Source: Stachybotrys elegans (lineage: Eukaryota > Ascomycota > Sordariomycetes > Hypocreales > Stachybotryaceae). Taken from it: a stretch of DNA of 64,000 bases. Where the stretch lies: assembly GCA_020746835.1 (NCBI GenBank), contig JAGPNK010000002.1, forward strand, positions 744,001 to 808,000, given 5' to 3'. The notes under the pieces are model-generated. The model worked only from the letters and a program-made list of their open reading frames with translations. It ran no database searches and was not told where the DNA came from. Each line of letters begins with the position of its first letter. Positions within the stretch are counted from its first letter, which is position 1. Shown here one piece after another: positions 15,069 to 32,789 of this stretch. The translations under genes were made by a program, and so were the position numbers.

Positions 15069-16912
15069 CTACTCAAACATCTTGCCAAGCACCTTTGATA
15101 CCTTACCCTTCTGTCGCGGCATAAAGAGAGTCTCGTAGCGATCAATCTCTTCCTTCAGGCCATTGAGGCTGACATCCGCCGTTCCAGGCCGAACATATTT
15201 TGTCTTCCAGAAGAGCTTGCCAAACCCAAAGGCTAGCACAAAGAAAGCAATCATGCCGTACGTCAAGAAGAACCACATGACGTCCCAGCCACCGTCCAAG
15301 AAGAGCGTGTACCCACCTGCGAGAAGCATGAAGGCAGTCCCGCCCATCGCCACATACGAAGTGTATGGCTGGAATCGCCCCTTATAGGGCAGCGTGTCCC
15401 GGGAAATCCCTTGCTGCTGCAGGGCCGAGTAGAAGTGCCGATAGACGATGGCCGTGCACCCGTAGTTGATGAGCTGGCAGGCAGTGACGAGGCCAATCAG
15501 GTATGTCATGACCACGGCCGACGAGCTGTTTACCTGGAGGAAGGCCAGCAGGCAGAATGACAGCGAGAAGAGAAGTGCCCACAGGGGAACTCCGCTTCGC
15601 GTGCACCATGCGAAGATGCGCGGCGCGTGGCCCTCGATAGCCATGCCGTGCAGCGTTCGCGTCGCCGAGAACAACAGACCGTTACCGGCACTGAAGATGG
15701 ACGTCATGATTAGGGCGTTGACCAAGTGAGGCAGTCCGTGGATGCGCAGCCTCTGCATAGCAATAATGTACGGCCTGGAACCTGTCAGTACAGCCTACCA
15801 CGCATACGTCTTGTAGGGTTGGGGGGCAACCTACGATGCTGCGCCAGTGCCAGCACCGCCCTGCTCGCCTCCCAGAATGGCCAGAAGCGTCTTGTCGTTG
15901 GACGGGACGACGATACCCATGCAGAGCGCGGAGCCAACAAAAAAGACGAGAATTCGCCATACAAAGGATCGGTAGGCTGGAGGCAAGACCTTTCGCGGAT
16001 TCTCCGTCTCGGCCGCAACCATGGAGATGTACTCTGGACCACAGATGCTAGGCAAGTGTCAGCAGCCTCCGGCGAAGGAAAGAAGGTGTGGTCTTACGAG
16101 AAACTGGCCTGGTACATGCAAGACAGGATTCCTAGAAACCTTCCCGTCCCTCCCGGAGCTAGATGTTCGACGAAGGCTCCGGGATCCTGCCAATATCGGA
16201 AACCGTAACGGTCGTTGATAGGATTTCCTCCGACCATGGTGATAAAGGTAAAGCCAAACAGCCCAAGCATCAGGAGCACCTTGAAGATGGACAGGTAGAA
16301 CTCGGCAATACCAAAATAGCGCACCGTGGCCACGTTGAGGAGAGCATAGAGGACAATCATGGCGACGATGATGGCGACGACGGGCACCTTGTCGGTCCAA
16401 AATGTAAACATGATGTTCATGGCCACAATCTCAAACGGCACGAGGAAGGCCATGTTGAGGAAGAAGTTCCAGGCCATGGCGAAGCCCATAGCACCGTCCA
16501 CCCACTCGCTGCCGAAGCGGATAAAGGGCGAGGGGACAGGGACGTATGTCACCATCTCGGCGAAACACTCGTTGACAGCCCACATGACGGCTCCCCAGAT
16601 GATGAAGGCGATGAAGAGGCCCGCGGGCCCTCCCTTGCTAAGCGCAGAACCCATCTGCACATAGAGAGCTGAGTGCCATTAGCTTGTCGGTTTGGTTTCT
16701 CCGAGGTGACGCGGATTCCACTTACAGGTGCCAATGGCGCCTCCGATGGCAAAGAGCTGCACCTCCTTCCCCCTCAGCTTGCGGTGCAGCGCCTGCGAGC
16801 CGGCCGTGACATCGGCCACGGTCCCGGAGGCTACATCGTCGATGGACTCCTGGGACTTTGAGTCTGCAACGGGGGTAGGCGGGCCCTTTTCCTGATAGTC
16901 TGAGGCGGACAT
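15069..16912 (-). CDS. amino-acid permease (APC family, fungal YAT type)
   Basis: Exons 16912-16726, 16668-16098, 16047-15835 and 15774-15069 give 558 aa. The first membrane helix has the AIGGAIGTSLYVQMG motif of fungal amino-acid permeases, and about 12 hydrophobic segments follow (for example AMAWNFFLNMAFLVPFEIVA and the ICGPEYISM helix). It should be a plasma-membrane proton-coupled importer of amino acids or related compounds; substrate cannot be read. A perfect GTCGG-N5-CCGAC palindrome lies 324 nt upstream of the ATG (17236-17250), the same site found in the promoters of the 19-35 kb enzyme block, so this is probably that block's transporter despite the intervening secreted-protein gene. 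Acceptors of exons 3 and 4 were chosen to keep the frame. Confidence 0.92.
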
Positions 16913-16972
16913 GATGTGTATGTTTTACTGAGCAGAGGACATGTAGTCAAGTGGCATAACAGGCAGGCAAAC

Positions 16973-17000
16973 CAAGGCAAGGCAAGGCAAGGCAAGGCAA
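16973..17000. repeat. short AAGGC tandem array
   Basis: Five or so perfect copies of a 5-nt unit (CAAGG/AAGGC) just upstream of the permease ATG, in its probable 5' leader. Confidence 0.8.
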
Positions 17001-17235
17001 AGACGGAGCAGGAGAAGACTGCAGTGGGGGGCGGGCGATGGAGATGGAGATATATGTCTTATGTTCTACTTTGAAGCCATCCTGACAGGCGTGATATCAT
17101 CCAAGAGGAAATGGGAGGCCTAGTGCGCCCGTTGAAGGCTGGAGATAAGCATACAGCAGGGCATGGACCAGGGTGGGTGCCGTGAGGTTCTAGACGTCGC
17201 GGGCAGCGAGTTGGCTAGTGGACGGTAACCCCAGT

Positions 17236-17250
17236 GTCGGATTGTCCGAC
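17236..17250. promoter_or_regulatory. GTCGG-N5-CCGAC palindrome (permease promoter)
   Basis: GTCGGATTGTCCGAC, 324 nt upstream of the permease ATG. Perfect 5+5 inverted repeat with a 5-nt centre; CGG half-sites facing each other are typical of Zn2Cys6 dimers. One of eight copies at 17-33 kb. Confidence 0.7.
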
Positions 17251-18220
17251 ACGATATCGAGTCATGGCGGCTTATCACGACCACGCCTGTGGGGACTCCC
17301 GCATAGCACATGGACTTGACGCTTGCTTATCTTGTATGGGTCTGTCATGATAATTTGTCAATGCTGCATAGGATCATGGGAGTTTGGCAAGCTTTGTTGC
17401 TGATACTATCTGCTTTATCTCCCAGCTCGTCCATGCCTTGCGTCAGCTTGATATGCAGTGGCCTGTCTCGGTTGTTCGCCAAGGAACTGAAAGACGTACA
17501 ATACGATAAGCAGGTTCTCGTGCATGATTAAGGGAAATAACCTGAAGCTCATGGCGCGTACGAGCTATACTATTCTTCTAGTATTTTAAAATTGCTCTCA
17601 AAGCGAAAGGTTGCCATGTAAAAGATGGCCACACACGAAAACATAAAAAGAACCAATATGATAATATTCCTGTTCCATGGAACAGTTGCTACTACAGCAG
17701 CATGAAATTGAATTAGGCATTTCCCGCAGGAAACAACATGTCGTGATACAAACCCGAAGGTTCAGAGAAAGTTGCCGTCTGTTCTGCACTTGAAACCAAT
17801 GATAAAGTAGCCTGGGAAAAACTGTCCCCCTATTACCAGGTACTCGGCGAGAAAGATGATGGCGAATCGATAATTTTAGGCTTCCTGTTTCCACTGTACA
17901 AAGATCTTGCTGTGTTGGAGAAATGAAGGCGAAGTTTTAACCTTGTTGGAAACCCAAAGTCGTCGACTGAATATATTACCAGTGCCAATGAAGGTTGCCG
18001 GCTAAGGTTATTCGTGTGCAAACTTTGGCAACTCTTTCACAACAGGTGGAAAATCCCGATACCGTGCCCCAACGGGATGGGGAGCCTTCTGGCGATATAA
18101 ATGATATAAAATCAATAGATGGCAGTTGGCAGAAAACAAACTTTTCAGTACACCCATCCTGAATGCTCATTCCATTCTCAAGATCACCATCTTCTCACCT
18201 TTTTCTTTATAGCCGCAGCC

Positions 18221-18956
18221 ATGCATTCTATCAAGACCATCGCAGTCGTCTGCCTCATGGGGCTCGTCTCCATTACCAACGCGGGTTCTCGCCCAGTCAA
18301 CAGAGTCTTCAACCTCGCCGATGCCGCACCGCCTTCCTGGGAAACGATCAACGACCAGATGAAGTGGTGGGGGGTGGCATACCTCAAGGACTCCGGGTTC
18401 ATAAAACAGGGCGAGGACTGGGTAGGGGTAAGAGGAGCATCGCCTTGACGGCTGGGTCTCTTCTCGCTAACAGCAACCGTCTAGGTCCGCGACCGGTTCC
18501 TGTGGAATAGTATCAGAATGCTCGACCAGTTCAACCCCAACGCGACTCTCTACCAAGCCCTTGTGTGCCATCATGACGTGGTCGAATTCCCCCATCATGT
18601 GTCGGCCCTTACATTTCCCCGGAGGCTCTGGTTCGAAGCAGGTGGTGACACTAAGGAGTTAGTAGTCCAACAAGACAGGGAGACGGAGAGAAATGCTGAC
18701 TTGTTACACGCAGCTACGACTGCTACTTCCTCCCGTTCCCCTTTGAGATGCATTTCAAGGGAAGAGACAGCGTCCATGAGGTGAGCTGCCGCAGTCCCTT
18801 CCGCTTCCCGATATCCTAGCTAATGAATGTGATGCAAAGGCGGCACTCCTCATCAAAGACTGGCATCATTGCCACCTCGCCACGAGGCGGAAGCGACTGA
18901 TTTGCCACACGAAGCCGATTCCCATAGGAAAGAAGAAGGGCATTTCGCGGTGGTAG
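18221..18956 (+). CDS. small secreted protein of unknown function
   Basis: Exons 18221-18427, 18485-18657, 18714-18780 and 18840-18956 give 187 aa. All introns are 56-59 nt and GT-AG, and the frames join cleanly, so this is a real gene although no exon exceeds 70 codons. A signal peptide (MHSIKTIAVVCLMGLVSITNA) is followed by a mature protein with four cysteines, an aromatic-rich centre (DYDCYFLPFPFEMHFKG) and a basic C-terminus (TRRKRL, GKKKGISRW). I recognise no family. Small size, secretion and position in an accessory block make it an effector candidate, which is only an inference. No copy of the palindromic site lies in its near promoter, so I do not count it in the regulon. Confidence 0.72.
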
Positions 18957-19443
18957 AGAGCCGGCGTCGAATACTACTAGCCATGAGGGGGCAAGATAGT
19001 GTCGCGTTGGCTGCACTGAAAGGGACTTGGTGCTTTCATCAACACCTTCCATTTCCCGCTTTCGCTGCATACTCGGCAATAATACACATATAAATTTAGA
19101 CACTCGAGCTGTTTATATTCCGGCTCGCTTGAATAATCTGCTTGCCTTGCCTTACTCTTACGGCGTCCCTCCATGATCATATGGACAGATTGCTTCCCTC
19201 TCCCCTTTTCTCTTCATTTGTATTTGTTTTATTTTAATTTTATTTTGGCTCTTGGTGAGCCCCAATATACTTATGATGTTCTTTCTTCTTCTCTTTAATC
19301 ATCCTAGCCGCTCAGCATCATCTGTTGATTTAATTATCTATATCGTCAGAGAGGGCCTTCTTCAAGTCACTGGTCTCTATCGCACTGGACCTCGGTTCGG
19401 AAATCTCACATACAGATATTCTTGAACCACCAACTTCATGTCG
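18957..19443. other. intergenic with dispersed-repeat copy
   Basis: AT-rich 3' regions of two convergent genes. Contains the repeat at 19321-19415; nothing else seen. Confidence 0.5.
19321..19415 (+). repeat. dispersed repeat A, copy 1
   Basis: About 70 nt (GTTGATTTAATTATC ... TATCGTCAGAGAG ... CACTGGTCTCTATC) matches 58265-58335 in the same orientation at roughly 80 percent by eye, followed in both copies by GGAAATC-T/C-CACATAC. Origin unknown; possibly a transposon end. Confidence 0.65.
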
Positions 19444-20386
19444 TCACTGCTTGAAAGAACCCCCGCTCATGGCCTCCTCGTATTGATAGTGCGGCTGGAA
19501 CTCGGTGTATAGCGTTTCCTAGTACAAGCATTTAGCCTCTCGTCTCGTACATCACCACAGAGGAACGTACCGGCGTGCTTGCCATGCGGAAGTTGTAAGC
19601 GGCCTCTTCGTCACTGACGTAGTTCTTCTTGTGTCCGGCGCTGTCGGCCAGCATCTGGATCATGCAGCTCCTCTCCATCAGGCAGAAGAGGTAGGCTGCC
19701 TCGTCGACCGTCTCGCCAACCGTCAGCAGGCCGTGGTTCATGAGGATGCACGCCTTGCCGTCGCCCAGGTTCTTGGCGATGCGCTCGCCCTCGGACTCTT
19801 CGTTGGCGATGCCGCCGTACTCCGAATACACCGAGTGCGCCTTGTAGAGGTAGCAGACGTCCTGGTTGATCATCTCGAGGGGTCTGGCAAAGGCGGACCA
19901 GGCCCTCCCGTGCGGCGAGTGCGTGTGGCAGATGGCATGTACATCTTTGCGCGCGCGGTGCACGGAGCTGTGGATCTGGAAACCCGCGTTGTTGATGGAA
20001 GCGTCGACATTGCCGCCGACGACGTCGCCATCCAGGTTGACGCAGACCATGTCACTGGCCTTCAGCAGTCCAAAGTGCACGCCCAGTGGGTTGATCCAGA
20101 AGCGGTCCTCGAACTCGGGGTCTCGCACGCTGATGTGGCCCGAGATGCCCTCTGCGTAGCCCTCGCGGGCAAAGACACGAAAGGCTCCGGCCATGTGCTC
20201 CAGCTGCCATTGTCGCTTCTCGGCAAAAGTCGAGAACTTGGGGATGCCAGCGAGTCTCTTTCCCTTGTGAGCCATGCCAACCATGGCCTCATGGGACCGC
20301 ATCTTGGCGGATGACAACTGAAGGGAATCGGAATCGGAAACGGTTGCCGTTACCGCTGCTGTCGTAGTGGTTAGTGCTGGAGCCAT
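19444..20386 (-). CDS. class II aldolase/adducin-domain protein
   Basis: Exons 20386-19571 and 19518-19444 give 296 aa. The second exon (ETLYTEFQPHYQYEEAMSGG) restores the usual C-terminus; reading through the 52-nt intron would end early. The zinc-binding histidines of class II aldolases are present in CHTHSPHGRA and MNHGLL, and the EGNIS-like phosphate/zinc motif appears as EGISGHISVR. Bacterial relatives cleave or epimerise sugar phosphates; fungal members are often metabolic-cluster enzymes of unknown substrate, probably doing a retro-aldol cleavage or decarboxylation. It is divergent from the CYP504-like P450, and a palindromic site lies 212 nt upstream of its ATG (20598-20612), linking it to the regulon. 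Confidence 0.9.
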
Positions 20387-20597
20387 GGTTATTACTACTT
20401 GTCTCTCTCAAAGGGACTTTATCCAGGTAGAGTTATCAAGTTACAAGAGAAGCAATGATAAAATGAAGTGAGGAGCTACTATCAAACAACAAAACAACGA
20501 CGAATCATGGGGCAACACAGCATGTGATTGTATTTACGAAGCCGGCCCCCCCCCCCGTCGGCTTGCTTGAATCCAGGCCATGCTGAACTCTCTTGTC

Positions 20598-20612
20598 CTC
20601 GGGTTGTCCGAC
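20598..20612. promoter_or_regulatory. CTCGG-N5-CCGAC near-palindrome (aldolase promoter)
   Basis: CTCGGGTTGTCCGAC, 9 of 10 fixed bases match the regulon consensus. It is the copy nearer the aldolase in the aldolase/P450 divergent promoter. Confidence 0.6.
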
Positions 20613-20925
20613 TATGCATACCATCCTCGTTTCCTGAAGCCGTATAACCCCTGATATTGATCAACTCCATATCAAAAATAGATAATTTAATGCAGGATAG
20701 CTTATTGGACCAGTGTATGGACCGAAAAGGAAACCGCGTATCTGATACGGAGCTGACGATAGTGAAGTAGGACTAGTTGTGGAGGAGTGTCGATTGATCC
20801 GACGCAGACATCCATCCACCTTGGTTCCGTCCTGATAAGGCTGATGGGGCAAACCAGTTAAGCAGAATGGGGAGCTATCGGCAACCAGTGAGCTGCGGAA
20901 GATAGCGCCTGATGACGTCCAGATC

Positions 20926-20940
20926 GTCGGCCCCTCCGAC
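20926..20940. promoter_or_regulatory. GTCGG-N5-CCGAC palindrome (P450-1 promoter)
   Basis: GTCGGCCCCTCCGAC, perfect inverted repeat, 178 nt upstream of the P450-1 ATG. Confidence 0.7.
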
Positions 20941-21117
20941 AGAGAGGATGGGTTTCCTGGAGAACATGGCTCTGGCGAATGCAACCAGACGATCAATCAG
21001 CTAGACGACGTTCAAGCCTATATTATTTAAGCTATCGTATCGGGTTTGGTATCGGTGTTGCTGGTTGTTGTGTCTTGAGTCTTGTCGCAGGCTGAAGAAC
21101 CTCAGAACACACTCATC

Positions 21118-22882
21118 ATGGACTCAAAACTAGCACACTTCATCACTCCCCTTGAGCACCGCCTCGCCCAGTTCAAGGATCATGAGAGCGCATGGCCGTT
21201 TTTGGTCGCGCTCGGCGTGGGCCTCGGTAGCTATTTCGTCTACAATGTGAGACGATGCCATCCCAAGACTTGAGCGGCGTACTAAATGAATCCCAGGTCG
21301 CCTTTAAGACTGACATCCCCCACATCAAAGGTCTCCCCGAGATTCCCGGGGCTGTGCCCATATTTGGACATCTGCTGAAGCTTGGCGAGGACCATGCCAG
21401 CACATGCGAGAAATGGTGGCGCCAGTACAACCACTCCGTCTTCCAGATCAAGCTCGGCAACACGAGGGCCGTCGTGGTCAACTCGTTTGAGGACTGCAAG
21501 AAGATGCTGCTCGGCAACCAAAACGCCGTCATCGACCGTCCCAAGCTGTACACCTTCCACGGCGTCATCAGCAGCACCCAGGGCTTCACCATCGGCTCCT
21601 CGCCGTGGGACGAGTCCTGCAAGAAGAAGCGCAAGGCGGCCGGCACAGCTCTGGGAAGACCTGCTCTGAGGAACTACTACCCCATGTTTGACCTGGAGAG
21701 CTACTGCATCGTGCGGGACATGAAGAGGGACAGCAAGAATGGCGAGATTGAGGTCGACGTGCGGCCTTATATCCAGCGCTACGCCCTCAACACTACTTTG
21801 ACGCTCTGCTATGGTATCCGGATGGACGAGGTGTACGACACTCTGCTACGGGAGATTCTCCACGTCGGGTCGGCAATCTCGCTTCTGAGGAGCGCATCCG
21901 AGAACCTGCAGGACTACGTGCCCCTCTTGCGCTACCTCCCCAACAACGAGAAGAACGCTCGCTCCAAGGAGCTCCGAGACCGCCGAGACGCCTACCTCAA
22001 CCTGCTGCTAGACAAGGTCAGGGACATGATCAAGCGCGGTGTCGACAAGCCATGTATCTCCGCGGCCATTCTTAAGGACGAGGAGACGAAGCTGAGCGGC
22101 GTCGAAGTCTCCTCCATCTGCCTCTCGCTCGTCTCTGGAGGATTCGAGACGATTCCCGGAACGCTGACGTCCTGCCTGGGCTCTCTGTCGACAAAGGAGG
22201 GTCAGGCGTGGCAGGATCGTGCGTACGAGGACATCAAGCGCCACTATCCGGATGTGCGCGATGCCTGGACGAGCAGCTTTGTTGAGGAGAAGATTCCCTA
22301 CGTCAACGCGATTGTCAAGGAGGCGGGACGGTACTACACTGTCAGCGCCATGAGTCTGCCCAGGAAGACGGTTACCGAGATCAACTGGAACGGCGCCATC
22401 ATCCCTCCCAAGACGATGATCTTGATCAATGCCCAGGCCGGAAACCACGGTAAGCCGATATGACGGGCATCTCTGACGGACCGGTCCATTTACTGACCTG
22501 AACAGACGTCGACCACTTCGGCCCCGATGCCGGATCCTTCGACCCGGAGAGGTGGCTCAAGAGCCTCGACCCTCCCGCCGAGGCAGACGCCAACGGCCTC
22601 GGCCACCTCAGCTTCGGCACGGGCTCGCGCGCCTGCTCGGGCCAGTTCATCGCCTCGCGGTTGCTGTACTCGGCCCTCGTGCGCATCCTGTCCACGTACA
22701 AGATTGTCGCGAGCGAGACGCACCCGCCCAACACGGACTATGTCGAATACAACCAGTTCAAGACGGCGCTGGTGGCCATCCCGCGAGAGTTCAAGGTCAA
22801 GCTGATTCCCAGGGATACGGGCGTGAGCGAGGAGTGCTTGGAGGCGGCTATGCTGCGGACGCAGGATCACTACAAGGAGTAG
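21118..22882 (+). CDS. cytochrome P450, CYP504-like (phenylacetate hydroxylase family)
   Basis: Exons 21118-21246, 21297-22449 and 22506-22882 give 552 aa. An N-terminal membrane anchor (about residues 20-42) is followed by the proline hinge GLPEIPGAVP, the I-helix GGFET motif, EAGR as ExxR, FDPERW and the heme loop FGTGSRACSGQ. The core (NAVIDRPKLYTFHGVISSTQ, GSLSTKEGQAWQDRAYE) resembles CYP504, whose characterised Aspergillus member PhacA hydroxylates phenylacetate at C2; this assignment is from memory of the family. It is an ER-bound monooxygenase, probably acting on an aryl-acetic or similar aromatic acid. It is divergent from the aldolase and carries a perfect regulon palindrome upstream. 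The start was chosen as the first ATG before the anchor. Confidence 0.88.
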
Positions 22883-23287
22883 AGTTGCAAGATAGATCTG
22901 GGCCAGGGAATGAAAATTATGGTTATGAATATATCGAATATATCCACATGAAGGATCCAGCAGCACAATGACGCATGGCCTTAACCAAGCATTGACTACA
23001 TTCGCACGTAGATCGTGTTTTGAGGACTTGATGGATACACAACTCCTGAGTATGACGAGCTTGTACTTGAACCAAAGAGCACCGCATGCACCGCTTTATT
23101 CTGAGTTATGCTCGCCCCTCCATCTGTCACGAGGTCCGCTCCTCATTGGAGCAAGAATCTCGTCGGATCGGCCGACAGGACACGATTCGCCCCAGATTTC
23201 CTATCAGACACTAAACTTCAATACAGCCGTACAAGTAGCACAACGCCGCCTTAGCCATCCCGCCCAGTATCATCACATTCAAGCAGC
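22883..23287. other. intergenic, SDR-1 promoter
   Basis: 3' region of P450-1 and promoter of SDR-1, with one perfect palindromic site. No gene seen. Confidence 0.5.
23162..23176. promoter_or_regulatory. GTCGG-N5-CCGAC palindrome (SDR-1 promoter)
   Basis: GTCGGATCGGCCGAC, perfect inverted repeat, 112 nt upstream of the SDR-1 ATG. Confidence 0.7.
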
Positions 23288-24406
23288 ATGTCTTCTCTAA
23301 ACGTCAAGGATCTTTTCAGTGTAAAGGGGTTCGTGGCGGCTGTGACGGGAGGGAGTAGTGGACTGGGGTTTATGATTTGCAAAGTAAGTACGGCTCTTCC
23401 GTCGATAAGCTCTCCCTTACTACTTGTCGTACTGATGGTCTATAGGGCCTTGTAGAGAACGGGGCCAAGGTCTATGTCATTGCTTTGCCTACTGAGCCTA
23501 TAGATGAGAAGGTGGCAGAACTGAACAGCCTCGGAGCAGCAACGGGAGGCAGTGCACACGGGTAGCAACGTCGCTCATTCGGACACGACGATGGACTAAC
23601 AAGGCTTACAGAATACCTTGTGATGTCCGAGACAAGGACCAGATCGCCAAGCTTGCAACGTACATCGGCGAGCGGGAGACGCATCTGGACATGCTCCTGT
23701 CCAACGCGGGCATCAGGCGAGACCCCGTCATCCCATGCAACGTCCTCACAGCCCCCCTCGCCGAGCTGCAAGCATCCATGTGGTCATCCAAGCACTCCGA
23801 CTGGGCCGACTCCTTCTGCGTAAACACAACCGCGCACTACTTCCTATCAGTCGCCTTCCTGCCGCTCCTCGCCGCAGCCTCCACGCTCGATCTGGGCGGC
23901 GGCGTGCTCGGGCGCAGCCAGGGCCGAGGCGTCGTCGTCGTCACGAGCTCCTGCGCCAGCATGCACAACGCCACGAACGTCGACTTGACGAGCTACGCGG
24001 CCACCAAGGCGGCTACGGACCATCTCGTCAAGCTGCTGGCTGCCAAGTTTAACCGCTTCTACGTGCGTGTGGCAGGCATCAACCCGGGCTGTACGTGCTG
24101 CGCTTGTTACTCTTCTGTGCGTCTTGTTGTGGCTGACTAGTTTTGCGCAGTTGTTCCGAGCAACATGAACCCAGTGGGAGAAGAAGGAAACATGTTTCAG
24201 TCGCTCTTCGACAAGGTTCCCGCCAAGAGAGCGGGCAACGAGGGGGATATCGCCGGTGCGATACTGTACCTCGTCAGTCGCGCAGGTGTAAGTGGTTTTC
24301 CATAGTCTTTGTGGCTTTGCTAACACGGAGTTGCCAGGCATACGTGAATGGGGTTTCGTTATGCATGGATGGCGGACGAATCCTCCTGGCGAATGGGCAG
24401 GAATAG
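23288..24406 (+). CDS. short-chain dehydrogenase/reductase (SDR-1)
   Basis: Exons 23288-23383, 23446-23561, 23612-24090, 24151-24287 and 24338-24406 give 298 aa. Classical SDR motifs are present: TGGSSGLG for the dinucleotide, CDVRD, LLSNAG, the catalytic Ser in VTSSCAS, and YAATK with the catalytic Tyr and Lys, then the PG motif GINPGF. The C-terminal exon has the usual NGVSLCMDGG. It should be a cytosolic NAD(P)-dependent alcohol dehydrogenase or ketoreductase of unknown substrate. Same direction as P450-1 and the amidase. No single exon shows the whole fold, so the model depends on four GT-AG introns that all keep frame. Confidence 0.9.
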
Positions 24407-25040
24407 AAGGGAACAAGTTCTTGCAGTCTTTCTTGGCTATTCTGATCCAGCGAGGATCGATGCACATGGGGAGTACCATCATCATACTATATCGTTCAAG
24501 TGTCTCAATTTGCTGAACTTCTACCTACAATCTTCCTATATGCTTCCCATGGCTCTTCCATTTCATCGCCGCACTTGTTGAGACATCTGCTTCCTTCTTA
24601 TATGTTGAATGATTTTCAAGAGCGTCACAACTCCCCAGAAAAGACGGCAATAGCTAAGACCAACAGGTTGAAAAACTTCATTCAATTTTATAATAGCAGC
24701 AGGCTCTTTGAGAAATAAACAGTTTCTTTGATCGAGCCTTAGGAACTAGCTAACCGACTGTCCTGTGCAGAAACCGGAAGATGGCTCAAGACGATGTTGA
24801 GATGTGGGAAGCATGACGACAGAGAACCACGCAACCTCCACTTTCCACGTATTCTCTCCACGCGGGTATTGCTAGTACGGTGATAGACTGGTGTTGGCTG
24901 GATAAGGAAGGTGTCCTTGCATTAATGCCCAAAGATAGCTGGGTCGGCTTGTCCGACAGTCTAGTATTCCCAACTTCATACATAGGTCCTCCAGACGGCT
25001 GAACCAAAGGGCATCGCCCGACAAAGAAAGATTGCCAAAC
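24407..25040. other. intergenic, amidase promoter
   Basis: 3' region of SDR-1 and amidase promoter; one perfect palindromic site, no gene seen. Confidence 0.5.
24943..24957. promoter_or_regulatory. GTCGG-N5-CCGAC palindrome (amidase promoter)
   Basis: GTCGGCTTGTCCGAC, perfect inverted repeat, 84 nt upstream of the amidase ATG. Confidence 0.7.
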
Positions 25041-26795
25041 ATGTCAGTGGTTTCACTTTCCAATGCATCACGGTAGGATTCTTACCCATCGCCAGACCTC
25101 GGAGTATTACTAACATGCCGTAGATCCAATCTGGGCCTTGATGATCTGCGAGAGCTTGCCAATAAGCTGAACATTTCCATTGACGATGACGAAGTTGCCA
25201 ATGATTATCTTCGGTTGCTGTGGTCCTTTGAGGGCATTTTGAACCAAGTAGAAGACGGCGAGGATTACATACACCCAGCACTGCAACCGCAAGCTGTCTC
25301 ACCAAGCCGAGAGTACACGCGTCCTACGTCGGAGGAGAATCCAATAAACGCCTGGAGCCATTGTTGCAGCTTCCGATCCACTGCTCCAGCCGACGCTCGG
25401 CTCCAAGGACGCACGCTTGCCATCAAGGATAACATATCCGTGGGTGGCTTGCCAACTACCTTGGGAGCGCCGGCCAGCATAGCCTCCAGGGATGGAGTGT
25501 ACAAGGAGTCACCCGTCGATGCAACTATTGTGTCCCGACTGCTCGCGGCAGGGGCCACAATCAAGGGGACCACGACATGCGAGTTCTACTGCGCATCTCC
25601 TTTGTCCTTCACCTCAGCGACGGGACCCGTTCACAATCCGCGCCTTCGTGGATACACGGCTGGTGGAAGCAGCAGCGGTTCTGCCGCCTTAGTAGCAGCC
25701 CATGGCCTCGCCGAGCCCAACGCTGTGCTGGGAGAAACCGTCGAGCTGTCCGTCGGTACTGACCAGGGCGGCTCGGTCCGCATACCAGCAAGCTTCAACG
25801 GCATCTACGGCTTGAAACCTACCCACGGTCTGATCCCCTATACCGGTGCAGCGTCCATGTCACCAATGATTGACCACCTGGGCGTCTTTGCACCGACAGT
25901 AGACGATATCGCAGTCCTGCTTGAAGTCTCGGCGGGCTACGACGGCATCGACCCCCGAATGACGCCTGAGTCGCCTCTGTTGGGCTCCGTGAAGCCGTAT
26001 AGTGAAATGCTGGCAGGTTTCCGCCAGCAGCTGGCGCAGGGCCTGGATCTTGGTAGGAAATGGAGGATTGGACTTGTCACTGAGTCCTTTGCTGTTCCTG
26101 GAGTCTCCCCCGATGTTCGTGATACAGTTCGAGAAGCCGCCAAGGCCTTCTTCGCCGCCGCAGGGGCAACCGTCGTGGACATATCGATCCCCATGCACAC
26201 AGAGGGGCCTCTTATATGGACAGCATCCACGCGCCCGTCCATGTCAAGCTGGCTCTGTCAGGGGAAGCCGACTGGACATCTTTCCTACCTGCCCCCTCAC
26301 TTCCAATCGAAATGGCCACTCTCAAAAGAAGACTTTGACTGCATTACAGCATTGAATCCAGCGCTGGGAAACATTGTGCTCAGCGAAGTCTTTGCTCAAA
26401 CAAAGGCGCCTGCGTGGATCGAGGCCAAAGCCGACCGCAAGGCGTTCCAACTGAGGGCAGCATACGACAAGGCCCTGGAGTCGGTGGATGTTCTCATCAC
26501 GCCGTGCGCACCAACCATTGCAACACCGAACCCAGCCTCGGTGGACAGTGATGGCGCGGCAATACCTATCCTGGAGAGGCTACAGCCTGCCATTGGGGTG
26601 ATTAGCAACACCTGCCCCTTTAATGTGTCTGGACACCCGGCCATGAGCGTGCCCTGTGGTTCATCCAGCCATCCGGAGCACCCCGATGTTGAACTACCCA
26701 TTGGAATGCAGATTGTTGGGAAGCGGTGGGCTGACGAGGATGTATTGTACGCGGCAGCTTTATTTGAGACGGGAAGAGCTATTGTATCAAAGTAG
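25041..26795 (+). CDS. amidase (amidase-signature family)
   Basis: Exons 25041-25072 and 25124-26795 give 567 aa. The short first exon (MSVVSLSNASR) joins the main exon over a 51-nt intron with a CTAAC branch site. The Ser-cisSer-Lys triad is visible: Lys in AIKDN, cis-Ser in GGSSSGSAALVA and the nucleophile in GTDQGGSVRIPAS. The enzyme hydrolyses an amide to acid plus ammonia or amine, in the cytosol as no signal peptide is seen. The last 9 nt overlap the end of the alpha/beta-hydrolase gene on the other strand. A palindromic site 84 nt upstream places it in the regulon. Confidence 0.95.
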
Positions 26796-27791
26796 ATCAT
26801 CAGTCAGAAACTCGGCAATTGTCTTATTCATCCACTCCGTATCAGCCTGGTTACTGCCCAGGCCCGCCAAGTGTCCCCATATTGACGGTATCACCGCCAA
26901 CTTAGCCTTGGGAATCCACTGAACCTCCCTCTCGCTCGCCTCCCAGCGAAAATACTGGTCTGTCTGGCACGGCATGAGCAGGACGCGTGCCTGTATCTTG
27001 GAAAGTGCCGTGTCCAACTTGCCCTCGCAAGACTCATCGACAACGGTAACATCACCGTGCTGCCACATCTGCAGCTTACAGAGAAGATCCTCCGGGTCCC
27101 AGCTGGAATAATTGTTGCCAGCCACATCCACGTCCCACTTGGCTAGGGTTTCGTAGCCCAGCGTCTTGTAAATCTCCTGCTCGAACCACTCCGCGCTCGT
27201 CAGCCAAGCCGAGTACGCCTTTCCAAAGGCACGCAGGCCACGAGATGGGCCTTGAGTAGGTTTCTGGCTCGCATCGACATAGTCGATTGCATTCTGCAGA
27301 GCAGCCTTGGGGCCCTCGAGAAATTGGTAGTTGTGCCTGCTTGTGCGGGCCGAGGAGCAGACAATGACGGCATTCCGAGCGAACTCTGGGTGCATGACGT
27401 TCCAGTAGTAGGTGCACTGGCCTCCCATGGAAAAGCCCAGCATCACGTCGACGCAAGTGATTCCAAGATGCCGCACGAGTAGCTGGCGCTGAGCTCGCAC
27501 GCAGTCCCGATAGTCAACCGACTTTGGCATGTCGGGAGTATTAGATGGACTCGACGACTCGCCATTTCCGAACAGAGCGACAACAATTACTCTGTAGTCT
27601 CTGAGGCAGCCATTGGCGTAGTTCAAGGTGGACTGGAGACGTCCGCGAAAGCAGGTGATGACCAAGGCAGTCTTGCTTGCCTGGGGGTTGATGTCCAGGT
27701 AGGCCAGCTTTACCGATGCGTTGGTTCCATTTTGGAACCGAAAGTCTTGGATTGTGTAAAACAGGATTGCCGGGGCTGCTTTGTCTGCCAT
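26787..27791 (-). CDS. alpha/beta hydrolase, homoserine-acetyltransferase-like (MetX fold)
   Basis: Single exon, 334 aa. The nucleophile elbow is GFSMGGQ, the acid is probably Asp in CQTDQYF and the base His in WGHLAG, in the MetX/HAT order. Fungal members of this subgroup are widespread in accessory clusters, and their reactions (ester, thioester or amide hydrolysis, or acyl transfer) are mostly unknown; a role in methionine synthesis is not implied. It is convergent with the amidase and divergent from RidA, sharing a promoter with a perfect palindromic site 243 nt upstream. Confidence 0.88.
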   Translation of the reverse strand: MADKAAPAILFYTIQDFRFQNGTNASVKLAYLDINPQASKTALVITCFRGRLQSTLNYANGCLRDYRVIVVALFGNGESSSPSNTPDMPKSVDYRDCVRAQRQLLVRHLGITCVDVMLGFSMGGQCTYYWNVMHPEFARNAVIVCSSARTSRHNYQFLEGPKAALQNAIDYVDASQKPTQGPSRGLRAFGKAYSAWLTSAEWFEQEIYKTLGYETLAKWDVDVAGNNYSSWDPEDLLCKLQMWQHGDVTVVDESCEGKLDTALSKIQARVLLMPCQTDQYFRWEASEREVQWIPKAKLAVIPSIWGHLAGLGSNQADTEWMNKTIAEFLTDDLL

Positions 27792-28299
27792 GTTGGGCTA
27801 GATTTGTGTCTTGAGTCAAGCTTGATAAGATGATGCCTTTGTCCCCAAGCTGGTGCATCCGTACATCAACCAAAACAGGCACGCCTGTGGCCTCGATCAT
27901 TACTCACACACGCACCATTTCCCATGTCACATAATTAATGCTGCTATCGGGAGTGTCGACCTCGGAGCCAGGGTCTGCCTTGACTCGAACAAGTGCCGAC
28001 GTAGGAGTTGTGGGGGGAGATTGGAGATAGCAGGTCGGAGCGTCCGACGCGGCCCATAAAGATATCCATCGGCTTGTTCCATCGGCTTATCGTGTGTTAT
28101 GGACGGGTTATCGAATCGTCACCAACTAAGCGTCGGACAGAGAAGATTGTGTCAAGTCGAGGATCAAGCAAGCGGGAGGCGCGACATGTAAAAGGCCGAG
28201 TAGGAAGACAAGAATGAGTCAGTAGACACTTGTTTCGATAGGAAAACACAGCCCAATCATCTCATCACTTGTCTCCCCTCTGCTTCCGCACAGCATAGC
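27792..28299. other. divergent promoter, alpha/beta hydrolase / RidA
   Basis: 508-nt bidirectional promoter with one perfect palindromic site almost exactly in the middle, a single TCGGA half-site near 28132 and a direct repeat of CCATCGGCTT (28066-28075 and 28079-28088). Confidence 0.6.
28034..28048. promoter_or_regulatory. GTCGG-N5-CCGAC palindrome (hydrolase/RidA promoter)
   Basis: GTCGGAGCGTCCGAC, perfect inverted repeat, 243 nt from the hydrolase ATG and 252 nt from the RidA ATG, placed to serve both. Confidence 0.7.
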
Positions 28300-28758
28300 A
28301 TGGCACCCAACGGAGAAGCATACCTGCTCAACCCGGAACTCCCTGCAGGGCCAACCATCTTCCCACAGGCTCGCACGGCTCCTGCAGCCAAGCACAAGAC
28401 CATCTACATCTCGGGCACGGCGTGCTGCCGGCCAGACGGCACGTGGGAGGGCGTGACGACCAACGCCGACGGCACGCACACGCTCGACATCCGCGTGCAG
28501 ACGGCGGCGGTGCTCAAGAACATTGACGACATCGTCAAGGGCGCCTCGGGGGGCAAGGGCGGGATTCACAACGTCATTGACGCCGTTGTTTACATCCTCG
28601 ACATGAAGAGCCAGTATGCGGGGATGAACGAGGAGTGGAACAAGGTCTTTACCAGCCGAGAGACGGCCCCCGCGAGAGCCACTATTGGCGTCAGGGAACT
28701 GCCGGACCCGCGCATGATTGTCGAGGTCAAGGCCGTGGCTGTGGTGGAAGAGGATTGA
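28300..28758 (+). CDS. RidA/YjgF/YER057c/UK114-family enamine-imine deaminase
   Basis: Single exon, 152 aa. The family Arg that holds the substrate carboxylate is in PARATIGVRELPDPRMIVEV, and YISGTACC matches the conserved strand before the active cleft. RidA proteins hydrolyse reactive imines/enamines to ketones plus ammonia; some relatives are 2-aminomuconate deaminases in aromatic breakdown. Length is slightly above the usual 130 aa because of an insert (GASGGKGG) and a longer N-terminus. In this block it probably removes nitrogen from an amino or imino intermediate made by another regulon enzyme. Confidence 0.92.
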   Translation: MAPNGEAYLLNPELPAGPTIFPQARTAPAAKHKTIYISGTACCRPDGTWEGVTTNADGTHTLDIRVQTAAVLKNIDDIVKGASGGKGGIHNVIDAVVYILDMKSQYAGMNEEWNKVFTSRETAPARATIGVRELPDPRMIVEVKAVAVVEED

Positions 28759-28921
28759 TTGCGTCTAGGCCTTGCCTGTTCTAGTCCTACTTAATAGAGT
28801 GTGTATCCAGGCTCACCCCACATGGCGATAAGATGGACCTCTACACAGTCTTGAACCATCCCGCATCCTCCCCATCCATCATCAATACCTACCGACTTCA
28901 CTTTACCACCTAATCGTCACC

Positions 28922-31313
28922 ATGTCATCCTATGCTCCCGCCGCAAAGGCAAGAGTGTCGTGCACGCGCTGCCATAAAAGAAAGAAGCGCTGCGACAAGG
29001 CCATCCCGTCCTGCCACAACTGCGACGCCGCCCGCGTCCGCTGCAGTTTTCTCGACGACAACCTCCAGACGGCTGCGTATTCCGTAGCGTAGGTCCATTC
29101 CGTTGTATGAATCGGGGCGTAGTCTGAGGCGGAAACAAAATTTGCTGCGTACTCTTTGCGTTGACCTCTCAATTGCTGTCCTTCTGCCACGCGCATGTCT
29201 TTCTATCAGAAGGGGGAAGGGCTTCCTCGCCATCACTCAACTAACATCTGCATAGCTATGTCCAGAATCTTGAGAGAAGAGTGAGAGAGATGGAGAGGAG
29301 GACGAGCGACGCCTCCTTTGCTTCGCCCCGCGAGGGTGAGGCAGTGGGCATCGGCGTCGCCTTGGACGACCCGAGCTCCCTCTGCCCAGACGCCACAATG
29401 AGAGATATGATCACGGCCATTCCAGAACCCAATATCATGGCACCTCTCTCGCATCAGCCTCACCTCGCTCAAGGTCCCGGTATTGCCGATCTCGCCCCAG
29501 CAGAGCCGCCACACATAACAAGTCCACCGATTCACCAAGAGTCATCACCCTCCTTTGTTGGAGAGCTCAAGACGCTGTCCTTTGAAGCAGCAGCCGAGCG
29601 TCATCTTGGCTCTTTCTCCGGGATATCCTTTGCCAAGCTGACGCAGACTGTCCTTCGGCGGCTAACGCCGGACAAGACCGACTTTGTCTTCAACAACGGC
29701 CGCGAGGACCTCGAGCCGCGCATGTTTGACTTCAACTCGTCGCTTGATCTCTGCGACCCTGCCCTGCTTGAGAACCTGAACGCGACTTTCTCAAACCAGC
29801 GCTTCTTGTATGGCGATGTGCCGCCTACCGACAGCGGGCTGGAACCCAGCCCTCCCGTGGCTCGCCTGGATGTTGAGAGTGACCAGCCGCGCATCGACGA
29901 GCTTGTCAATTTCTACTTTGCGCACTCGCATACGCTGTATCCCATGCTCCATCGCGGAGACCTGCTCAAAAGTCTGGAGCAGATCCGCGAAAAGCCATAT
30001 GACCCCGTGGTTCATTCACCACTCGACCTCTTTAGGATATGGATGGTGCTGGCGATTGGGTCCACAGCCTACGCCTCCGTTTCCCTAACAGATGAGGCCG
30101 AATCCAGGTTCTACTACGGAAAAGCCCTGAGCTACCTTGATGAGGCCATGGCATGTGGCGAAATGGTCAGTCGCCGCGTCTTGAAGATGGTGCCCCATTC
30201 ATTGCTGATTGAGACGTACAGGCCGCCCTCGAGGTCATCGCACTACAAGTCTCGTACTCCTTCTTCAATCAGTTTGGACCAAGTAAGTACCTTGAAGCCA
30301 CTTCTGTACTACCGACTAACCTGTAGTATAGATACATGGTTCCTTGTAGGGCTGGCTGCCCGGCTGGCTCTGGGGATGGGCTTGCATACCGCCTCGACTT
30401 ACGTCGGGATGACAGCAGACATGGAGCAGCGGCGAAAACGAATCTTCTTCTCCATCTACATGATGGATCGGTAGGTTGATTTGACCACTCTTAGGCAGCA
30501 TCCCATGCTGACTGGTTCTGTGAAGCGTCATATCAAACGCATTGGGTCGCCCCTTTGCCCTTCACGAAGACGACATCGACGTCGAGGTAAGGGCCCCTGA
30601 TGGAGAGTAAAGACTCACGCTGACACAATAAGCCTTTCTCTGTCAATCACGACGACGGTTATAGCAGTGGTTTTGGACGCGTTGACGATGTTTTTCGAAC
30701 ATCCATCCTGAGTATTCCCCGGCATATCCTGGCACTCCGTATGATTGCCAGTAAGATTGCGCGGCAGGTTTACTCGAACCGCAAGGCAGCAAGCCTCAGC
30801 ACCGAGGAGCGAGAAGAGATTCTACACTCCCTGCACAGAGAGCTGATTCAGTGGCGCCGAGACATGCCGTTCCCACTGCCGGACATCAACGACCGCGTTC
30901 CTCAGTTGACGAGCAACTGGTTCGACTACAACTACTACACGCACCTCGCCATGATCTACAGGCCATCGCCTCTCATGCCAACCATGGACAACAGGAGAGT
31001 CGAGATTCTACAAGACGCAGCGTCCATGTCCTTGCGGCAGGCATTCGCGATGCACAGCCAGAGACGGTTCGCATACAACTGGCTCAATCTCTTATCCATC
31101 TTTACATCGGCATTATCACTCATCTACGCGACCACCGTCCAACCCAAGGACCTAGGTAAGGCCCTGAAGGAGACACGGGCCATCGACGACCTTGATTTGG
31201 CTATTGAGTTGTTCGATACGCTGGGGATGAAGTTTTCGGCGGCCAACAACATACGGAGCATGGTTGCTGAAGTGTCAAGGCGGTACAAGGACTTGCGAGG
31301 ATCAGCTGGGTGA
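28922..31313 (+). CDS. Zn2Cys6 fungal-specific transcription factor (candidate cluster regulator)
   Basis: Exons 28922-29088, 29256-30165, 30222-30282, 30332-30470, 30526-30586 and 30633-31313 give 672 aa. The N-terminal zinc cluster CTRCHKRKKRCDKAIPSC then HNCDAARVRC has all six cysteines. Exon 2 opens with a coiled-coil dimerisation stretch (YVQNLERRVREMERR). The fungal_trans middle-homology domain spans about residues 210-480, with WFLVGLAARLALGMGLH rebuilt over two introns. Such proteins bind paired CGG triplets as dimers, which fits the TCGG-N5-CCGA palindromes in neighbouring promoters. Its own promoter (28759-28921) has no such site, so control may come from inducer binding rather than autoregulation. 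That it binds the palindrome is an inference. Confidence 0.93.
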
Positions 31314-31426
31314 GGATATTGCTCATGTGTCTGCTGTATTATGGATGCCATGATTCTTGCAAGTTAACAGAAATTTCCAAAGACGAAGAAAGGATAGAGG
31401 CGAAAATCTCCCATAATCAAGGTCTC

Positions 31427-32336
31427 TTATGAGACCCAGCCTCCGTCAACAATGATATTTGTGCCCGTCATGCTCCTGGAGATTGCAAGCGTCAATACCT
31501 GCAGGGCGACGTCCTAACGATGAGTGTCAGTAATGCTCATAGCACGCGCAGACTGCAATCACTCACCTCGAGCTCTGCAAATCTCTTCAATTTCGACTTT
31601 TGCTTCATTGCGTCTTTTTGCTCTGCGCTAAACCTCTCGGCCCATTCCTGATATAAGGTTAGCAGCAGCTTCTCTGATATTTGCGGCGTCGCTTACCGTC
31701 TGAAGCATGCCGGGAGATATGGTGTTTACACGAATCTCAGGCCCAACCATGCTGGCCAGCCCCTTGACCATGTGTATCTGTGCAGCCTTGGTGGCGCCAT
31801 ATGCCTGGAGAATTCAGCGATGTCCATGGACAAGCGGTTGTGTTACTGCATACCAAAGAACTGCCCATCCCTTGGACGCCTGCTACGGAGGCCGTTGTGA
31901 TGAAGGCGCCCTCCGTTTTCTTCAAGTGCTCCTTTGAAGCATGCAGCAGCCAGAGGTGCGACTTGACGTTCATGGTAAAAGCACGATCCCAGTCTTCCAC
32001 ATTGACATTGTCATCGAGGCTCGTCGTGTCGGTGAAGCGAGTCCAACCACCATTGGAAAAGACGACGTCGAGACGGCCCATGGCGGAGATGGTCTCCTGC
32101 ACCAGCCGCTGGACATCTTCTCGCTGCGCCAAGTCTGCCTGGATCGTCATGTGCGAAGGCTTTCCATCGTGCTCCTCTTGGCCTCGGTTGATCTCCTTGC
32201 ACAGCTGCGCAGCGCGTGCAGTGTTGGAACTGTAGTTGATGACGACGCGGTAGCCACGGCGTGCAAACAGCCTACAGACCTCAGCGCCGAGGCCTGCACT
32301 GCCAGCAGTGACGAGAATTACGAGTTTGGGCTCCAT
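31427..32336 (-). CDS. short-chain dehydrogenase/reductase (SDR-2), atypical motifs
   Basis: Exons 32336-31854, 31804-31697, 31647-31567 and 31513-31427 give 252 aa, a normal SDR length. The nucleotide motif reads VTAGSAGLG (TAG where TGG/TGA is usual), and the NNAG motif reads SNGG. The catalytic Ser (ITTASVAG) and YGATK are standard, as is the C-terminal GTNIIVDGGW. Probably an active NAD(P)-dependent oxidoreductase with a slightly altered Rossmann loop. Divergent from P450-2; two overlapping palindromic sites lie between them (32510-32538). Confidence 0.88.
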
Positions 32337-32509
32337 GCTGGTCGAGTAGAAGGTCTTGTGGAGTAGGTAGTAACCGAAACAAGCAAACAAATAAATATGA
32401 ATAAATGCTAAATAATAGATGCACACTCGATGATCACTTGACAACTTCAACACCATCTGCAGCGCATCGACGGCATGCCATGCAAGCGCTGCGATACCGG
32501 TGTTGGGGC

Positions 32510-32524
32510 GTCGGTCCCTCCGAA
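32510..32524. promoter_or_regulatory. GTCGG-N5-CCGAA site (SDR-2/P450-2 promoter, first of pair)
   Basis: GTCGGTCCCTCCGAA, 9 of 10 fixed bases match. Shares its last base with the next site; 174 nt from the SDR-2 ATG. Confidence 0.6.
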
Positions 32525-32538
32525 TCGGGTACTCCGAT
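32524..32538. promoter_or_regulatory. ATCGG-N5-CCGAT palindrome (SDR-2/P450-2 promoter, second of pair)
   Basis: ATCGGGTACTCCGAT, perfect palindrome of the same spacing with A/T outer bases; 252 nt from the P450-2 ATG. Confidence 0.6.
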
Positions 32539-32789
32539 GCAGCATGACATGGAATTCAGCGCCCTTTGCCCCTCCTCCAGGCTTATCATATCTCCCCTCC
32601 TTGCCTAGACTCCGCTTTCGACGACTAGAGTCCTCAACCAGCGATGCGATCGATGCTGGAGATGATGGCTCGTCTGTTAGTGGATTAGTGACGAGTGATG
32701 AGTTCTACCCCTCCTGCGGACGAGGTTATTTATTTAGATGCGGATTGGTCGAGGCCAAGACGCTCGCTTGGGTCTCGTCCAGCACCGTC

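What the first reader, a model, noticed from the sequence alone, without database searches (positions are those of the whole stretch)
17236..32538. A shared palindrome, GTCGG-N5-CCGAC, marks every enzyme promoter of a 20-kb gene block
Five perfect copies (17236, 20926, 23162, 24943, 28034) and three close variants (20598, 32510, 32524) all lie in intergenic promoters between 17.2 and 32.6 kb. They serve the permease, aldolase, P450-1, SDR-1, amidase, the hydrolase/RidA pair and the SDR-2/P450-2 pair. With ten fixed bases the chance expectation is about 0.06 copies in 64 kb at equal base use. The element has the form of a Zn2Cys6 dimer site, like UaY/Ppr1 sites (TCGG-N6-CCGA) but with spacing 5, and the block encodes a Zn2Cys6 protein. 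The fifth spacer base is T in seven of eight copies. I believe this is an undescribed regulon.
Basis: partly seen in the sequence, partly recalled or inferred. Interest (0 to 1): 0.9.

Follow-up and report, generated by a model that had tools for sequence, protein, structure and literature searches.

The report
Shared control site in fungal cluster
A block of nine neighbouring metabolic genes in a fungus carries the same short DNA control site in the promoter regions of its enzymes and transporter, most likely bound by the zinc-cluster regulator encoded in the block; the design is a familiar one, but this site and the pathway it seems to switch on appear to be uncharacterised.

Summary
Five exact GTCGG-N5-CCGAC copies lie where stated, against 0.09 expected; among all 5-mer inverted repeats with spacers 0-12 it is the window's strongest. 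The 43.4-Mb genome has 44 copies, five in this 11 kb. Of the other 39, 21 are called coding. All six promoter regions of the nine enzyme and permease genes carry a site, one of them only imperfect copies; the regulator's own promoter has none. The better description is asymmetric, TCGG-N4-TCCGA: the window's eight all lie in these promoters, the densest group among 241 listed of 257 genome places. A second group, three copies in one promoter on contig 1, lies outside the block. Best reading: target of the block's own Zn2Cys6 regulator (28922-31313), whose DNA-binding domain and linker are well conserved and which shares a contig with the CYP504E gene in 32 cases. GATA sites suggest nitrogen control. 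Host: probably Stachybotrys elegans. The design is known; spacing 5 appeared once in the papers searched, as an untested candidate. Binding and footprinting are untested.

The parts
17236..17250 (+). site GTCGGATTGTCCGAC, exact; amino-acid permease promoter (centre 331 bp from its ATG)
20598..20612 (+). site CTCGGGTTGTCCGAC, 1 mismatch; aldolase promoter
20926..20940 (+). site GTCGGCCCCTCCGAC, exact; P450-1 promoter (185 bp from ATG)
23162..23176 (-). site, exact; reads GTCGGCCGATCCGAC on the minus strand; SDR-1 promoter (119 bp from ATG)
24943..24957 (+). site GTCGGCTTGTCCGAC, exact; amidase promoter (91 bp from ATG)
28034..28048 (+). site GTCGGAGCGTCCGAC, exact; hydrolase/RidA divergent promoter
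32510..32524 (+). site GTCGGTCCCTCCGAA, 1 mismatch; SDR-2/P450-2 divergent promoter
32524..32538 (+). site ATCGGGTACTCCGAT, 2 mismatches; SDR-2/P450-2 divergent promoter
15069..16912 (-). amino-acid permease (PF00324), 4 exons, 558 aa
   Evidence: model; Pfam on two exons
19532..20386 (-). class II aldolase/adducin-type enzyme (PF00596), 284 aa; best solved sequence TqaM
21118..22882 (+). cytochrome P450-1, 3 exons, 552 aa; a listed homologue is named CYP504E1
23288..24406 (+). short-chain dehydrogenase 1, 5 exons, 298 aa
25041..26795 (+). amidase (PF01425), 2 exons, 567 aa
26787..27791 (-). alpha/beta hydrolase, homoserine-acetyltransferase-like, 334 aa; its end overlaps the amidase end by 9 bp
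28300..28758 (+). RidA-family protein (PF01042), 152 aa; best solved sequence 2-aminomuconate deaminase
28922..31313 (+). Zn2Cys6 regulator, 6 exons, 672 aa: PF00172 at 13-47, coiled-coil-like YVQNLERRVREMERR, PF04082 at 274-521
31427..32336 (-). short-chain dehydrogenase 2, 4 exons, 252 aa
32790..34645 (+). cytochrome P450-2 (PF00067), 4 exons, 536 aa (one GC-AG intron in my model)

Best explanation
TCGG-N4-TCCGA (extended form GTCGG-N5-CCGAC) is the operator of a pathway-specific Zn2Cys6 activator encoded at 28922-31313. A dimer of the activator sits on the two inverted CGG half-sites (spacing 5), about 90-330 bp upstream of start codons. On an inducer, probably the pathway substrate or an early intermediate, it switches on nine genes together: an amino-acid-type permease, a class II aldolase-like enzyme, the CYP504E-like P450-1, two SDRs, an amidase, an alpha/beta hydrolase, a RidA-type deaminase and a second P450. 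GATA factors probably add nitrogen control. The enzymes look like a catabolic or detoxifying route for a nitrogen-containing aromatic compound (uptake, hydroxylation, amide cleavage, imine/enamine deamination). Shown: the sites, their number, place, spacing, asymmetry and rarity in the genome; the gene content; a conserved regulator; its contig-level linkage to the P450-1 family. Inferred: that this regulator binds the site, that it activates, the inducer and the substrate.
For: Five exact copies against 0.09 expected; strongest pattern of its class in the window; 5 of the genome's 44 copies in 10.8 kb, Poisson P 1e-12. Six of six 5' intergenic regions of enzyme and permease genes carry a site; the small-ORF/aldolase gap, the RidA-to-regulator gap, the regulator/SDR-2 gap and the 823 bp after P450-2 carry none. 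In the nine block gaps 8 of the 10 TCGG-Nk-CCGA pairs with k 0-20 have k=5, and these are 8 of the 9 k=5 pairs of the window. The window's eight TCGG-N4-TCCGA matches are all in these promoters, against 257 places in the genome (288 oriented matches); of the 241 places listed, the block's eight are the densest group at 16 and 20 kb, the next being four on contig 1. Flanks of the copies are unrelated. Regulator: Zn_clus and Fungal_trans domains, best solved relative of the domain Ppr1, an inverted-CGG binder (recalled); 80 of the 120 listed homologues show the cysteine pattern near the N-terminus, with a closely similar linker. Regulator and P450-1 homologues share a contig (equal contig length) in 32 cases among two 120-row lists. 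Three database proteins fuse the regulator with RidA, SDR-2 or P450-1 orthologues (71, 61, 85% identity), which shows adjacency in three other species.
Against: No binding, expression or deletion data. No fungal DNA of another species could be fetched, so conservation of the site is unknown. The regulator's own promoter has no site, and the SDR-2/P450-2 promoter has only imperfect copies. The site form is not confined to the block: three identical TCGGTTGATCCGA copies lie 60-135 bp before the ATG of an unrelated-looking small gene on contig 1, and one exact copy lies upstream of the best non-self regulator match (26% identity), so another zinc-cluster protein may read the same site. Sixteen of the 257 genome places were not listed. 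No ring-cleavage dioxygenase was recognised in the block, so the substrate class is a guess.
Confidence: 0.77

Rival explanations
1. The site is a true regulatory element of the block, but is read by a different, unlinked zinc-cluster regulator (a UaY-like protein or the contig-1 paralogue); the linked regulator uses another site.
For: The best non-self match of the regulator in the genome (C1:5730681-5732375, 26% identity over residues 271-647) has an exact copy, C1:5732844, upstream of it, with TCGG-N6-CCGA and TCGG-N7-CCGA in the same intergenic region. Three copies lie in a contig-1 promoter outside the block. The block regulator's own promoter has no site.
Against: The densest group of sites is in the block that contains the regulator, its domain class fits inverted CGG sites (class preference recalled), and it is linked to the P450-1 family elsewhere.
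Confidence: 0.17
2. Chance or pattern-hunting artefact.
For: The pattern was picked after reading the sequence; two-mismatch matches are common (49 in the window against 31 expected).
Against: Scan of all comparable patterns, genome counts, and placement and spacing that agree with promoters.
Confidence: 0.01
3. Copies are pieces of a dispersed repeat or a structured RNA element rather than protein-binding sites.
For: They are inverted repeats.
Against: Flanks and most spacers differ; the genome has only 44 exact copies; they lie upstream of genes on either strand; no Rfam family matches 15000-35500 at gathering score. No folding was run.
Confidence: 0.02

Closest known systems
Ppr1 (yeast) / UaY (Aspergillus) zinc-cluster regulators and their TCGG-N6-CCGA sites
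   Same: Inverted TCGG half-sites; zinc-cluster domain followed by a short linker and coiled coil; Ppr1 (1pyi) is the best solved-sequence match of the domain (E 5e-5)
   Different: Spacing 5 instead of 6; T as last spacer base and mostly flanking G/C; different target genes
GliZ of the gliotoxin cluster, TCGGN3CCGA (string seen only as a hit term in the listing)
   Same: Cluster-encoded zinc-cluster regulator with an inverted TCGG repeat (role recalled)
   Different: Spacing 3 against 5; secondary-metabolite biosynthesis against an apparently catabolic gene set
AflR, TCG-N5-CGA (recalled)
   Same: Cluster-specific regulator and palindrome
   Different: Here the TCG and CGA triplets are 7 apart (TCGG-N5-CCGA)
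FDB1 benzoxazolinone cluster of Fusarium verticillioides (PMC4726666, passages read; the FDB2 gene table was not seen)
   Same: Zn2Cys6 regulator, amidase and amino-acid transporter in one cluster
   Different: FDB1 lists metallo-beta-lactamase, dienelactone hydrolase and salicylate hydroxylase genes; the words P450, aldolase, permease and endoribonuclease do not occur in that paper's main text

Membership tests
Zn2Cys6 (Gal4-type) regulators | CX2CX6CX5-9CX2CX6-8C motif | tested here: met
   Residues 14-41 by reading; PF00172 E 2e-7
Zn2Cys6 (Gal4-type) regulators | coiled coil after linker and Fungal_trans domain | tested here: met
   YVQNLERRVREMERR by reading only; PF04082 E 4e-30
Zn2Cys6 (Gal4-type) regulators | binds CGG half-sites | not testable with these tools
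   No binding assay; sites of this form are in the linked promoters
UaY/Ppr1 site class | TCGG-N6-CCGA | tested here: not met
   The block gaps have 8 pairs at spacing 5 and none at 6
GliZ site class | TCGG-N3-CCGA | tested here: not met
   None at spacing 3 in the block gaps
pathway-specific regulon | site in the promoters of the cluster's genes | tested here: met
   6 of 6 promoter regions, one with imperfect copies only
pathway-specific regulon | site rare and not grouped elsewhere | tested here: inconclusive
   39 exact copies elsewhere, 21 called coding; but three TCGG-N4-TCCGA copies in one contig-1 promoter and one exact copy before a paralogue
pathway-specific regulon | co-expression dependent on the linked regulator | not testable with these tools
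   No expression data

The most novel reading that the evidence does not exclude
The block is one case of an uncharacterised pathway found across several classes of Ascomycota that takes up and breaks down a nitrogen-bearing aromatic compound with a CYP504E-like P450, an amidase and a RidA-type (2-aminomuconate-deaminase-like) enzyme. It is run by an orthologous regulator that reads an asymmetric spacing-5 site through an asymmetric dimer and also has targets outside the block, such as the contig-1 gene with three copies; the site could then be used to predict the regulon in many fungi.
Probability: 0.4. Interest if true: 0.6.

Novelty: new member of a known kind. Interest (0 to 1): 0.42.

Why it matters
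Few of the many fungal zinc-cluster regulators have a known site (recalled). Here one genome gives a regulator, a candidate site, its spacing, its asymmetry and a target list at once, and the domain and linker are alike in 80 of 120 listed homologues, so the prediction can be checked in sequenced species. It also points to a route whose P450-1 is conserved at 79-88% identity in the other 119 listed homologues and whose substrate I could not find in the papers searched.

Tried and rejected
Rejected: identity with the FDB1 benzoxazolinone cluster, since the gene content differs. Rejected: chance. Not supported: a general promoter element. Of the 39 other exact copies 21 are called coding, 7 uncertain and 11 non-coding. 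On the genes the codon table was trained on, the scan called 103 of 140 coding positions coding and 22 uncertain; of 150 intergenic positions it called 0 coding and 8 uncertain. Some copies called non-coding lie in long open frames (L036 in 1557 aa, L013 in 571 aa). Pfam was run on 10 open frames from 8 of the 18 loci listed: prenyltransferase, MFS transporter, lipocalin-like, WD40, actin, tRNA synthetase, AA9 and flavin monooxygenase, two without a family; no amidase, SDR, P450 or RidA. The other 10 of those 18 loci were not examined this way.

Led nowhere: fungal DNA for footprinting (P450-1 protein in viral contigs: no match, alignment A1 in genome and viral contigs: 63 and 15 pattern matches, none a relative). 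Literature: searches found no paper; two searches gave two papers each, seen as listings only; one search listed FDB1 papers, of which passages of PMC4726666 were seen; one search listed 7 papers, none opened; one search gave PMC5215518, where one passage names CGG-N5-CCG as a candidate motif in the A. fumigatus cdr1B promoter without proof of binding; one search gave PMC11534201 for a spacing-6 string, listing only. CreA sites are not clearly enriched (17 against 14.7 simulated) and CCAAT is not (8 against 10.5). The P450-1 search of solved structures gave only general P450 relatives among the 60 shown. Rfam: no family at gathering score in 15000-35500.
Full report
Observation. The exact pattern GTCGG-N5-CCGAC occurs five times in the window, at the stated places, against 0.09 in dinucleotide-preserving shuffles. 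In the whole genome (43,405,109 bases, 61 contigs) there are 44 copies, below the 95 of the reversed control pattern; five of 44 in 10.8 kb has Poisson P 1.3e-12, or 5e-9 after multiplying by the number of such stretches.

Placement. I built gene models from splice sites and open frames. The block runs from the permease (ends 15069) to P450-2 (ends 34645). Its 5' intergenic regions are permease/small ORF, aldolase/P450-1, P450-1 to SDR-1, SDR-1 to amidase, hydrolase/RidA and SDR-2/P450-2; each has at least one site, the last only imperfect ones. The amidase and hydrolase genes converge and overlap by 9 bp at their ends. The regulator/SDR-2 convergent gap, the 163-bp gap before the regulator, the gap between the small ORF and the aldolase, and the 823 bp after P450-2 have none. 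Site centres sit 91 to 331 bp from the nearest start codon of an enzyme or permease gene.

The element. Over the block's nine intergenic gaps (4,937 bases) TCGG-Nk-CCGA occurs 8 times at k=5 and once each at k=0 and k=19, and at no other k from 0 to 20; in the whole window there are nine k=5 pairs. Among exact GTCGG-N5-CCGAC copies elsewhere, 15 of 39 have this T on one strand (counted by hand), against 5 of 5 here. So the site is asymmetric; I take this as a hint of an asymmetric dimer, as I recall for Ppr1 (inference).

Genome-wide groups of the asymmetric form. There are 288 oriented matches, 257 distinct places; 241 of the 257 were listed. In 16- and 20-kb stretches the block's eight are the densest group; the next has four (contig 1, from 358133), and at 20 kb two further groups have three (contigs 5 and 14). 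Eight in 15.3 kb against 0.09 expected has Poisson P 1e-13. The contig-1 group is a result that limits the 'block only' claim: three identical TCGGTTGATCCGA copies within 88 bp, 60 to 135 bp before the ATG of a small open frame with repeats rich in glycine, proline and arginine (tandem repeats). Its spacer TTGAT is that of site 20789. It may be a target in trans or the site of another regulator.

Other exact copies. I fetched 5 kb around all 39. A codon-usage scan coding, 7 uncertain and 11 non-coding; its error on the training genes is given under Tried and rejected. Ten open frames near 8 of these loci belong to families unrelated to the block. C1:5732844 lies about 470 bp upstream of the DNA-binding-domain match of the best non-self match to the block's regulator, in an intergenic region shared with a flavin monooxygenase gene, and that region also holds spacing 6 and 7 pairs.

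The regulator. 672 aa, six exons, PF00172 at 13-47 and PF04082 at 274-521. The best solved relative is Ppr1, through the domain. 225 homologues pass E 1e-3 among the 7,996 candidates scored, the best 120 listed; the best is 59% identical, in Clonostachys rosea. In 80 of the 120 the cysteine pattern is found near the N-terminus, and domain plus linker read close to RCHRRKKRCDR-LPxC...CSFLDDDxQxxSYPIAYVxxLExRVxELE. The other 40 lack the pattern in their first 120 residues; missing first exons in gene models are likely but were not checked. The listed names span Sordariomycetes, Eurotiomycetes and Dothideomycetes (class assignment recalled).

Linkage. 32 of the 120 listed regulators lie on a contig of exactly the same length as one of 120 listed P450-1 homologues; in nine of these pairs both locus tags are legible and differ by 3 to 8, for example Fusarium nematophilum ACJZ2D_003748/003753 and Neonectria magnoliae QQZ08_007996/007992. 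Three database proteins fuse the regulator with a neighbour: RidA in Purpureocillium lavendulum (71% identity to ours), SDR-2 in Penicillium concentricum (61%), P450-1 in Aspergillus terreus (85%). Five listed P450-1 homologues carry SDR domains as well (P0152, P0164, P0165, P0179, P0215). I read these as merged gene models of neighbours. Linkage of the permease, aldolase, amidase, hydrolase and P450-2 in other species was not tested.

Host and pathway. P0121, cytochrome P450 of Stachybotrys elegans, is 100% identical to P450-1 and lies on a contig of 3,522,092 bases, the length of this genome's contig 12. A listed homologue is named CYP504E1 and many are named phenylacetate 2-hydroxylase. Best solved sequences: RidA, 2-aminomuconate deaminase (E 5e-15); aldolase, TqaM (E 9e-81); amidase, chains named Amidase (E 3e-71); hydrolase, homoserine O-acetyltransferase (E 4e-32); SDR-2, 3-oxoacyl reductase (E 6e-27). 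HGATAR sites number 31 in seven block intergenic regions against 12.6 in simulations (0 of 200 reached it); five non-coding control stretches of similar total length have 3 against 8.6, fewer than simulated, and the 39 fetched loci as a whole have 1.7 per kb. Together this suggests nitrogen-controlled catabolism of an aromatic amide or amine; the substrate is not shown.

Comparison with the known. A cluster-encoded zinc-cluster protein with a shared inverted repeat in its target promoters is an established design (AflR and UaY/Ppr1 recalled; GliZ seen in the listing). Of six spacing-5 strings searched, one was found in one paper, as an untested candidate. The UaY/Ppr1 and GliZ spacings are not met here. 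I therefore file it as a new member of a known kind, with a distinct site. What would change that is evidence on the asymmetric reading of the site or on the pathway.

Noticed in passing
L007 2151-2782 (G000 C1, near 5732844): Intergenic region between a distant paralogue of the regulator and a flavin monooxygenase gene holds one exact GTCGG-N5-CCGAC plus TCGG-N6-CCGA and TCGG-N7-CCGA and seven GTCGG/CCGAC half-sites.
   Followed up: partly
L044 2485-2572 (G000 C1:368784-368871): Three identical TCGGTTGATCCGA copies within 88 bp, 60-135 bp before the ATG of a small open frame with repeats rich in glycine, proline and arginine; possible target outside the block.
   Followed up: partly
window 16913-32789, intergenic parts: Excess of GATA-factor sites (HGATAR) in block intergenic regions, while non-coding control stretches have fewer than simulated.
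   Followed up: partly
window 18221-18900: Small gene model between permease and aldolase with a signal-peptide-like N-terminus by eye; its splice sites and family are uncertain.
   Followed up: no
window 26787-26795: Amidase and hydrolase genes converge with overlapping ends.
   Followed up: no
window 34534-34597: The P450-2 model needs a GC-AG intron.
   Followed up: no
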